A stretch of DNA of 37,573 bases, taken from contig JAADES010000003.1 in the NCBI GenBank assembly GCA_013153315.1, positions 1 through 37,573 of the forward strand, in the 5' to 3' direction. This DNA comes from Aquificota bacterium (GTDB lineage Bacteria > Aquificota > Aquificia > Aquificales > QOAS01). Shown piece by piece: positions 35,161 to 37,061 of this stretch; within the stretch, counting starts at the first letter, position 1; each line of letters starts with the position of its first letter. The position numbers were made by a program, and so were the translations under genes. Below the pieces are notes generated by a model. It ran no database searches and was not told the origin of the DNA. It saw nothing but the letters and a program-made list of their open reading frames with translations.

Positions 35161-35286
35161 CTCCCCGCTAAAGCGGGGAGTTTCTCAGCCTCTAAAAGCG
35201 TTGTTAAAGGAGGCTGAGCTATTACTACCCTTAGCAGGTAGTAGGGCGTGCCTGTCCCTCCTACGGGGTGGCTCTAAGCCACCACC
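35161..35286 (-). ncRNA. Candidate omega-RNA (reRNA) at the tnpB 3' end
   Basis: The minus strand folds into four consecutive hairpins. GGTGGCT/AGCCACC spans 35267-35283, TACTACC/GGTAGTA 35223-35243, CTCAGCCTC/GAGGCTGAG 35184-35218 with a 17-nt loop, and CTCCCCGCT/AGCGGGGAG 35161-35180 at the end. This series overlapping the last codons of tnpB is what is known for TnpB guide RNAs, whose 3' guide comes from the flanking DNA. The guide would begin after the last hairpin, in the space before argS. The tnpB tail (GGLEPPRRRDRHALLPAKG) is the translation of this RNA. Confidence 0.75.
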
Positions 35287-35835
35287 GATGTAGGTTTCTC
35301 TCTTTATAACCTCGTGTTTTTTAACATCTACCCTAAAAACTATCAATTTGAATTTCTCTTTTAGTTTGTTTTCAAAAATAAAACCTCTCTTTAGTTTTAA
35401 ATTGAAAAAGTTCCTTGCAATTCCTAAAGAGCCCACAAAATCTCTATGAAACTTAAATCCACATTTAGAACACTTATAGTTTCTGTTATTTGTTTTATTT
35501 TTCTGTCCACACACGGGACAAAGTTGGGTGGAAAACCTTTCGCTTACTTCCACCACTTTAACCCCGTATGCGGAAAGTTTATTTTTAATTTTTTCAATTA
35601 ACTTCCTAAATCTCCAAATTAAATGGATTTTCCTATTAGCGTTTTTGTTATATTTTGCTTTTTCTCTTATACCTTTTACATCACCTATTACAACTGTTCC
35701 TATTTTGTTTTCTAAGCAATAATCTAACAACTTTTTGATATATTTGTTTTCCAAATCCTCTATTTGCCGTTCCACTTTCCATATTTGGTTGTTTAAAGAA
35801 TCTTCTACTCTTTGGTATCTCCTACTTCCTTCCTG
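35185..35835 (-). pseudogene. tnpB: TnpB, C-terminal part (RuvC-II, zinc finger, RuvC-III)
   Basis: This is the second half of a broken TnpB. The frame opens at QEGSRRYQRV just after the 41-nt palindromic insertion and runs 216 residues; the first in-frame possible start is a GTG at 35775. It has the RuvC-II region GTVVIGDVKGIRE, in which the usual catalytic Glu is Gly. The zinc finger is CPVCGQ ... CSKCGFKF, and RuvC-III Asp is in FHRDFVGSLGIARN. Glu residues 45 and 48 positions after that Gly (VEVSERFSTQLC) could serve instead, as described for TnpB and Fanzor proteins with a rearranged site. The end overlaps the omega-RNA. Confidence 0.88.
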
Positions 35836-36626
35836 TTAACAATAGCACCCTCCCCTAAAGGGGAGGGATTAACGCTTTTATGTGCTAAAAGTTTTTGTTT
35901 AATGGATATAAGTTTAAATCTTTTGTGCTTTAAACATCTTATGTATCTACCATTAAATAGAGCGAATTGATTGTTGGTCTCATCGTAGCAAGCAAAAGGA
36001 TGTATTTCTCCTAAATCCACAAATAACCTTTTCTTTCTCTCTACATCTTGTTTTTGGTCGGGATATTTGATAATTAGATTTACAATCAACCTTCCGAATT
36101 TTTTGGTTAAAACCGCCTGTCTAATTTCTCCACCGAATTGATTTAGCCATTTATCAAGGAGTTTAAGATGTTTCTTTTTAAGTTTAACTATAAGCGGTTC
36201 TTTTCTCCTTGCATTGGGAAGGATTAATTTTCTTCCATCAAATCTGATAGCTTGATTTTTCCAAATGATAATGTGTTGGTTTCTTCTGGAAGGATAATTA
36301 TGGTTTTTATCTATAAACCTGTTTTTAACGGCGGTTTTAATAGACCCTATTAGGTAGTCAATAATTGCTTGTGTAGTTTGAGAATGAAGCAAGGAAGATT
36401 TAACCGTTTTTTGAATTTTATTTTTTAGGGAATTGAAAAATTTTAGAAATTCTTTTTTACTTTCAGAGGAGTTTTGTTTAAGCAAATCAAAAAGGTAGTT
36501 TTCGTTAAGTTGGTCTAATGCCAAATCTAAGGCTCTGTTCCAAACGTTGGCACTTTCAAAGGTTAGAGGAAGTATAGATGGCCCTAAGTGTTTTGGAAGT
36601 TTGATTTTTATAACCGCAAAGGCCAT
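35805..36626 (-). pseudogene. tnpB: TnpB, N-terminal part (WED/REC and RuvC-I)
   Basis: The first half of TnpB, the RNA-guided nuclease of IS200/IS605 elements. The frame is 273 residues, of which 1-250 are TnpB: an N-terminal wedge region, a helical recognition part rich in Lys, and the RuvC-I Asp in LFVDLGEIHPFACYD (D204) followed by GRYIRCLKHKRFKLI. Residues 251-264 are translated from a palindromic insertion, after which the frame ends. Joined without the insertion, K250 would run directly into QEGSRRY, giving about 466 residues, a normal length. The ATG has AAGGAAG 6 nt upstream. Confidence 0.88.
35836..35876 (+). repeat. Palindromic element, copy 1, inside tnpB
   Basis: A 41-nt insertion that breaks tnpB. 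It consists of TTAACAATAGCA, the stem CCCTCCCC/GGGGAGGG (35848-35855 and 35860-35867) with loop TAAA, and ATTAACGCT. Removing it restores the reading frame and a normal TnpB sequence (HK joined to QEGS), which fixes the boundaries to within two bases. Its length is not a multiple of three, so it shifts the frame by minus one. Confidence 0.85.
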
Positions 36627-36710
36627 TTATACTTCCTTAAATTTTTAAGAAAAAAAAATTACTAAGTAAAAAATGACATTAATCATACTCTGCCATTCAT
36701 GAAGCCCGTT

Positions 36711-36775
36711 CGTTAACCCTCTCTACAATAGCACCCCTTAAAAAGGGGATTAACGCTTTTAGAGAGGGGTTAACG
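36711..36775 (+). repeat. Outer palindrome enclosing palindromic element copy 2
   Basis: CGTTAACCCTCTCT (36711-36724) and AGAGAGGGGTTAACG (36761-36775) are complementary over 14 bp with one extra G. Between them sits a complete ACAATAGCA...TTAACGCTTTT element. On the right side the stem runs into GTTAACGCTT, the usual right flank of the family, so the outer structure is itself a likely family member. Confidence 0.7.
36725..36760 (+). repeat. Palindromic element, copy 2 (nested)
   Basis: ACAATAGCA, stem CCCCTT-aaa-AAGGGG (36734-36748), ATTAACGCTTTT. Flanks match copy 1; the stem differs. It occupies the loop of the larger CCCTCTCT/AGAGAGGG stem. Confidence 0.8.
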
Positions 36776-36777
36776 CT

Positions 36778-36817
36778 TAACAATAGCACACATGCTTTTA
36801 AGCATGTGTTAACGCTT
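36778..36817 (+). repeat. Palindromic element, copy 3
   Basis: TAACAATAGCA, stem CACATGCTT/AAGCATGTG (36789-36808) with a TT loop, then TTAACGCTT (36809-36817). It directly abuts the right flank of the preceding outer palindrome. The stem is unrelated in sequence to copies 1 and 2 but fully self-complementary. Confidence 0.8.
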
Positions 36818-36851
36818 AAAGGGCGAAATAAAATTTACGAAGTAAATAGCT

Positions 36852-36894
36852 ATGAAGCCGCGTAGCGGCGGAATAAGATTTAGTTCCTAAATCT
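36852..36894 (+). repeat. Double-hairpin element, copy 2 (intact)
   Basis: ATGAAGCC with stem GCCGC-gta-GCGGC (36857-36869), then GGAATAA and the second stem AGATTTAG-ttc-CTAAATCT (36876-36894). Compared with copy 1 the spacer sequences are conserved while both stems vary with compensating changes (ATTTAC/GTAAAT against ATTTAG/CTAAAT). Confidence 0.7.
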
Positions 36895-36947
36895 GTATCC
36901 CTTAGCTGTTTCTTTTTACTGAAAAACTCTATGGAAGAAAAATAAAG

Positions 36948-36981
36948 GCCAAAAAGCAAAGGGCTTTCTGGCGGGTTTTTT
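36948..36981 (+). terminator. Rho-independent terminator with no plus-strand gene before it
   Basis: GCCA and TGGC enclose the inner stem AAAGC/GCTTT (36948-36972), followed by GGG and a run of six T (36976-36981). The nearest upstream plus-strand gene ends at 30594, so it probably ends an RNA made from the palindrome cluster. Confidence 0.6.
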
Positions 36982-37061
36982 GTAAGCGGAGGTTTTAAAT
37001 TTTTTGTATTTAATTATTCTCCAAACTATGTTCCTAAATTTACTAAACTCTTAATTGCTTC

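What the first reader, a model, noticed from the sequence alone, without database searches (positions are those of the whole stretch)
35805..35876. Exact 41-nt palindromic insertion splits tnpB and its removal restores the protein
Cutting out 35836-35876 joins HK to QEGSRRY in frame and gives a normal TnpB of about 466 residues. This shows the palindrome is a true insertion with definable ends, and so probably mobile. The insertion lies in a protein that is itself part of a mobile element. It leaves a minus-one shift, so TnpB is dead unless ribosomes or RNA processing skip the hairpin, as in T4 gene 60 bypassing.
Basis: seen in the sequence. Interest (0 to 1): 0.75.

Follow-up and report, generated by a model that had tools for sequence, protein, structure and literature searches.

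The report
Short mobile hairpin family splits tnpB
The 41-base insert in this transposon gene is one copy of a swarm of tiny mobile DNA hairpins in an uncultured Aquificota bacterium; two other copies sit in frame inside intact genes, so the reading-frame break here is probably a later one-base accident rather than a ribosome trick.

Summary
Removing window 35836-35876 makes LLAHK|QEGSRRY contiguous, as in an intact TnpB paralogue. The insert is one copy of a short repeat: fixed tags GCGTTAA...TGCTATTG around a stem that is free in sequence but paired (98.3% of cells in nine equal-length copies). The exact pattern gives 38 hits in the window's own genome against 0 for the reversed pattern. A covariance model finds 36 there, 1-4 copies in 5 of 6 same-genus genomes, and none in 129 other genomes of the phylum. 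TA lies on both sides of 23 of 35 copies (2.9% at random positions). Some copies sit in hairpin loops, in each other, and in IS200/IS605 end hairpins; empty sites exist. Two other copies are proven in-frame coding insertions: 14 residues in HolB, 12 in a second TnpB. The HolB event, of the same subtype, is 42 nt and keeps frame; the tnpB copy is one base short, so the frameshift is secondary or an assembly error. Bypassing is not supported. It works like Rickettsia palindromic elements and REPs, with different tags. The mobilising enzyme is unknown.

The parts
35837..35878 (-). Mobile hairpin element inserted in tnpB: AAAGCGTTAAT-CCCTCCCC-TTTA-GGGGAGGG-TGCTATTGT plus one TA copy; core AGCG...ATTG = 35840-35876; the other TA at 35879-35880
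   Evidence: (63.1 bits, E 7.6e-12)
35808..36626 (-). 5' part of the interrupted tnpB (250 codons up to HK, then the element, then out of frame to a stop)
   Evidence: no Pfam or NCBIfam hit on its own
35188..35835 (-). 3' part of tnpB from QEGSRRY (guided_TnpB NF040570 2.4e-28; Cas12f1-like_TNB PF07282)
36726..36757 (-). Second copy, nested in the loop of the next feature; flanked TCTC-TA ... TA-GAGA
   Evidence: 8-bp outer stem CCCTCTCT/AGAGAGGG
36709..36777 (-). Outer hairpin element (AGCGTTAACCCCTCTC ... GAGAGGGTTAACG) that received the copy at 36726-36757; its right tag differs (TTAACG)
36781..36816 (-). Third copy, in tandem with the previous one (stem CACATGC)
36684..36985 (-). Left end of the IS200/IS605-type element (TTAC, then CCCGCCAGAAAGCCC...CTAAGGGAT ... 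ATGAATGGC), disrupted by nested hairpin insertions
   Evidence: (uninterrupted left ends in L034, L120, L127, L129)
35184..35218 (.). Right-end hairpin CTCAGCCTC/GAGGCTGAG whose loop holds TAAAAGCGTT-GTTAA, read as a hairpin-deleted remnant of a copy
   Evidence: interpretation by comparison with intact copies (inference)

Best explanation
The insert is one member of a family of about 32-40 nt, non-autonomous mobile DNA hairpins. A copy is a fixed foot (AGCG, an unpaired TTAA bulge on the 5' side, then TGCT, with tail ATTG(T)) carrying a stem whose sequence changes freely while it stays paired. Copies go in at TA, with TA on both sides afterwards, and a subset lies in the loops of other hairpins, notably the end hairpins of IS200/IS605-type elements and sister copies. 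Inside genes, copies that are read through in frame persist, adding a 12-14 residue loop. The tnpB copy was most likely a clean 42-nt in-frame event of the same subtype as the holB copy, which later lost one base, leaving this tnpB a pseudogene. Shown: family, covariation, TA flanks, empty sites, two in-frame cases. Inferred: single-base loss, movement in trans by an unidentified enzyme, and upkeep of the stems by hairpin-templated correction.
For: 38 exact pattern hits in the own genome, 0 for the reversed pattern. Tags near-invariant across 30 typed copies while the stems differ. Covariation: 98.3% of 117 cells paired against 85.1% after shuffling, 18 cells changed on both sides against 5.4; the shorter class 90.9% against 81.1%. 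Filled/empty pairs: left-end hairpin L032/L113/L118 filled, L127/L034/L120/L129 empty; right-end region L090 filled, L099/L105/L111 empty; L106 filled where L099 and L111 have the bare hairpin. TA on both sides in 23 of 35 own and 6 of 7 relatives' copies, 2.9% at random. Hairpin-loop sites: 8 of 35 at stem score 16 or more against 3.0% of control TA sites. HolB 14-residue insert absent from 6 of 6 orthologues; it falls in a pLDDT <50 turn between two strands. Second TnpB: 12-residue insert absent from 2 of 2 relatives.
Against: 12 of 35 own copies lack TA on one or both sides, and the extra T after ATTG is present in only part, so the ends are not sharply defined. Most copies (27 of 35) are below the hairpin-loop threshold, and several of the high scorers are related IS ends or nested copies, so they are not independent. 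The second TnpB insertion fits 36 nt with no visible duplication. Only two in-frame cases are proven by relatives; PanE and Nth copies sit at termini, relatives do not cover the L011 site, and relatives of the L028 ORF were not searched. No mobilising enzyme was identified.
Confidence: 0.82

Rival explanations
1. Programmed ribosomal bypassing or frameshifting (T4 gene 60 or mitochondrial byp type) skips the hairpin and yields full-length TnpB.
For: The insert is a stable hairpin and its exact removal leaves an intact frame.
Against: In holB and the second tnpB the element is in frame and open, so there is no need to skip it and no sign that it is skipped. The codon before the landing frame is TAA, not a match for AAA; the -1 frame meets TAA. 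Family copies also lie outside genes and in both orientations.
Confidence: 0.03
2. Assembly or consensus error of one base: the real tnpB carries a 42-nt in-frame insertion and makes a TnpB with a 14-residue loop.
For: A same-subtype copy in holB is 42 nt and in frame; the rest of tnpB is open on both sides; the genome is a draft in 58 contigs.
Against: No reads were available; a real loss is equally simple, and the left end of this IS is wrecked by nested insertions, as expected of a dead element.
Confidence: 0.25
3. Non-autonomous relative of IS200/IS605 moved as single-stranded DNA by a Y1 HUH transposase, with TA as target and as its own right end (no true duplication). This is a choice of enzyme within the best explanation, not an alternative to the family.
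For: Asymmetric tags, a bulged hairpin foot, loops of hairpins as sites, copies inside IS200/IS605 ends; Y1 genes in 2 of 7 genus genomes.
Against: The IS of this genus appears to begin at TTAC, not TA (my reading); the own genome's single Y1 gene has a stop inside; four genus genomes (G001, G003, G004, G006) have one copy each and no Y1 hit. There is one hairpin, not two ends.
Confidence: 0.3
4. MITE of a TA-targeting DDE transposase (IS630/Tc1-mariner type).
For: TA on both sides.
Against: No terminal inverted repeats; DDE_3 (PF13358) found in 0 of 7 genus genomes, while 3 of 14 control genomes ring.
Confidence: 0.08
5. Regulatory RNA or intrinsic terminator repeat, not mobile DNA.
For: Covarying stem; some copies sit at gene ends.
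Against: Copies inside coding genes, in both orientations, nested and tandem, with empty sites; no Rfam match in the window apart from a tRNA.
Confidence: 0.04

Closest known systems
Rickettsia palindromic elements (RPE)
   Same: Palindromic repeats inserted in frame in unrelated protein genes (PMC2229807 passages; PMC10969869 passages).
   Different: The RPE described is 105-146 bp with 12-bp inverted ends; here about 37 nt, unlike tags, stem sequence free. No direct sequence comparison was made.
REP repeats tagged GTAG or CGTC (GTAG ones with RAYT transposases)
   Same: 20-40 nt, one hairpin of 5-13 bp, unpaired tag, subfamilies with alternative complementary stems, intragenic copies often in DNA synthesis and repair genes (PMC3733652, section 15 read and passages seen).
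   Different: No GTAG or CGTC tag; tags GCGTTAA and TGCTATTG flank the stem on both sides; TA on both sides; no RAYT partner identified.
GC clusters of yeast mitochondrial DNA
   Same: About 42-nt mobile hairpins with a dinucleotide (AG) target and merged copies (PMC4478555 passages).
   Different: Organellar; target AG; GC42 stems are conserved rather than free.
IS200/IS605 end hairpins
   Same: Hairpins at the ends of a mobile element; the element sits in their loops in this genus.
   Different: Single hairpin, own tags, TA instead of TTAC.

Membership tests
Rickettsia palindromic elements | In-frame insertion into protein-coding genes | tested here: met
   HolB insert absent in 6 of 6 orthologues; second TnpB insert absent in 2 of 2 relatives
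Rickettsia palindromic elements | Length of 105-146 bp with terminal inverted repeats, as described | tested here: not met
   Cores of about 31-37 nt, tags not inverted copies. The shorter RPE-4 and RPE-6 (named) were not compared
REP (GTAG/CGTC) | GTAG or CGTC unpaired tag at one end | tested here: not met
   Invariant columns are GC.TTAA and GTGCTATTGT
REP (GTAG/CGTC) | Short hairpin with alternative complementary stems, dispersed copies | tested here: met
REP (GTAG/CGTC) | Dedicated RAYT (Y1) gene flanked by the repeats | tested here: inconclusive
   One G005 Y1 gene lies just downstream of a copy (L032); the own Y1 gene is interrupted and has a related palindrome beside it
MITE | Terminal inverted repeats | tested here: not met
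   left tag GCGTTAA and right tag TGCTATTG are not inverted copies
MITE | Target-site duplication | tested here: inconclusive
   TA on both sides in 23 of 35, but a Y1-type fixed end would look alike
IS200/IS605 derivative | Left and right end hairpins with the IS target (TTAC) | tested here: not met
   one hairpin; TA flanks
Translational bypass element | Matched take-off and landing codons | tested here: not met
   AAA against TAA at this site, read; the rule itself is recalled
Translational bypass element | Insert absent from the protein | not testable with these tools
   needs proteomics

The most novel reading that the evidence does not exclude
A class of mobile DNA recognised by structure: the mobile unit is only a bulged hairpin foot with two short tags, the stem is free, and integration is into the single-stranded loops of extruded hairpins (IS ends, TnpB guide-RNA hairpins, sister copies), by an enzyme not yet known.
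Probability: 0.2. Interest if true: 0.7.

Novelty: new variant of a known kind. Interest (0 to 1): 0.45.

Why it matters
In-frame mobile palindromes are best known from Rickettsia and, as tagged REPs, mainly from proteobacteria. Here an unrelated Aquificota lineage has a family with its own tags, near-empty sister species and one species with some 36 copies, so gain, loss, target choice and protein tolerance become countable. The free-but-paired stems and loop reversals offer a natural test of hairpin-templated (template-switch) correction, and the habit of sitting in IS200/IS605 end hairpins raises whether it alters TnpB guide RNAs.

Tried and rejected
Stem copied from the target: interior-to-flank matches averaged 5.59 against 5.24 for shuffled pairings, 25 of 500 shuffles as high. 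Borderline, and several of the top cases are tandem or nested copies; not claimed. A pattern for bare right ends found nothing. The first structure string for pair counting was out of register by two columns (51.9% paired) and is superseded. The TnpB model was too poor to use (mean pLDDT 39, two-row alignment). Rfam gave nothing for the element. Literature: eight searches answered, one rejected for a character. None listed an Aquificota hairpin family by title or abstract start; the Aquificales ncRNA paper was seen by passages only (PMC4227106). Two wanted papers (cyanobacterial small dispersed repeats; coding palindromes in Rickettsia) are not held and are known to me by recall only.

Full report
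WHAT IS THERE. Window 35805-36626 (minus) begins a TnpB-like protein, and 35188-35835 (minus) continues it in another frame. The 3' part is called guided_TnpB by NCBIfam (2.4e-28) and carries the Cas12f1-like TNB domain; the 5' part alone has no family hit. Against an intact TnpB of the same genome (L002/L037), the two parts align without a gap between LLAHK and QEGSRRY.

IT IS A REPEAT FAMILY. On the minus strand the insert reads AGCGTTAA-T-CCCTCCCC-TTTA-GGGGAGGG-TGCTATTG. The pattern AGCGTTAA N(8-40) GTGCTATTG has 38 hits in the window's own genome (1.35 Mb, 58 contigs) and none for the reversed control; the closely similar pattern has three hits in the window, against 0 in 100 shuffles. Some hits overlap because copies are nested; merging identical ones leaves 35 distinct innermost copies among the stretches I fetched. 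Same-genus records that carry it are named Aquificota MAGs.

STRUCTURE. The tags are nearly invariant but the stems differ: 34 distinct interiors among 41 copies of the own genome and relatives. RNA folding joins AGCG to TGCT below the stem with an unpaired TTAAT. Counting pairs for that structure on nine 37-nt copies gives 98.3% of 117 cells paired (shuffled 85.1%), six pairs with double changes and 18 such cells (shuffled 5.4). Sliding the partners by 1-3 columns drops pairing to 39-59%. Eight 34-nt copies give 90.9% against 81.1%. The foot pairs hardly vary, so they are suggested, not proven, by covariation. Two loops are seen in both orientations (CTTTAG/CTAAAG in L032 and L113; CTTTTAAG/CTTAAAAG). 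That is what hairpin-templated switching could do (mechanism: PMC8794818, outline with abstract read).

DISTRIBUTION. A covariance model built on the nine copies finds 36 matches in the own genome, 1 to 4 in five of six same-genus genomes, and none in the other 129 of 136 phylum genomes (strict filters, best 50 candidates scored per genome).

INSERTION SITES. One search gives filled and empty versions. The left-end hairpin of the IS200/IS605-type element has the copy in its loop in L032, L113 and L118 and lacks it in L127, L034, L120 and L129. The right-end region has it in L090 and not in L099, L105 and L111. A short hairpin GCACCGCTTAGACGGTGC is bare in L111 (with a one-base variant in L099) and filled in L106. 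TA occurs on both sides in 23 of 35 own copies and 6 of 7 relatives' copies, against 2.9% at random positions. 8 of 35 own sites have an outer stem at score 16 or more, against 3.0% of control TA sites. These eight include two nested copies and related IS ends, so independence is limited, and 27 of 35 sites are not in such loops. In the window, one copy sits inside the loop of another (36726-36757), a third is in tandem, and the right-end hairpin loop (35193-35207) holds what looks like a copy that lost its hairpin (inference).

INSIDE GENES. HolB (DNA polymerase III delta'; best NCBIfam match TIGR00678, 169 bits, just under its cut-off of 180.6) has exactly 14 extra residues, SVNPSPLGEGAIVK, absent in 6 of 6 genus orthologues (five, the sixth). 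The predicted structure puts them in a pLDDT <50 turn between two strands (mean pLDDT 76). The second TnpB has 12 extra residues absent in 2 of 2 relatives at 80-82% identity. Further copies read in frame at the end of PanE, near the start of Nth, in the L011 ORF and in a porin-like ORF, L028. For these, relatives show termini only (PanE, Nth), do not cover the site (L011), or were not searched (L028).

THE FRAMESHIFT. In holB the inserted block, drawn with a TA duplication, is 42 nt. The tnpB copy is of the same subtype and has TA on both sides, yet it adds 41 nt. The simplest reading is an in-frame insertion followed by loss of one base, or a consensus error; I cannot tell these apart without reads. 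Skipping by ribosomes is unsupported: proven intragenic copies are open and in frame, AAA is not matched by the TAA at the landing frame, and the -1 frame stops in GCGTTAA (read).

WHAT MOVES IT. Unknown. A Y1 (HUH) gene occurs in 2 of 7 genus genomes and the own one is interrupted; DDE_3 is in 0 of 7. The IS of the genus appears to start at TTAC while the element uses TA, so simple borrowing of that IS's cleavage sites is unlikely. A Y1-type mechanism remains my leading but unproven guess.

COMPARISON. It works like Rickettsia palindromic elements and tagged REPs, but the REP tags were looked for and are absent and the RPE length does not fit, so I file it as a family of that broad kind that I did not find described. 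That last statement rests on the eight answered searches listed under Tried and rejected and on an open-access library only.

Noticed in passing
window 36817-36930: Other hairpin repeats with different constant flanks (GAAGCC ... GGCGGAATAA; CGAAATAAA ... AGCTATGAAG; GGAATAAG ATTTAG ... TGTATCC) are stacked in the left end of the same IS; similar pieces recur near L002 and L042. Possibly further families of the same kind.
   Followed up: partly
L032 and L113: Two nearly identical IS left ends differ by reversal of the element's loop (TTTA/TAAA), as do CACATGC-stem copies in the window and L022.
   Followed up: partly
L001, L002, L007, L012, L016: A more symmetric variant exists: GCRTTAAC-stem-GTTAAYG instead of the TGCTATTG right tag.
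   Followed up: no
window 35188-35835; L002: The stretch where TnpB normally shows its second RuvC acidic residue reads VVIGDVKG / VVIGKVKG; the catalytic glutamate may be displaced or missing (motif recalled, not tested).
   Followed up: no
L042: The only Y1 transposase gene found in the own genome carries an internal TGA and lies beside a palindromic variant of the element.
   Followed up: partly
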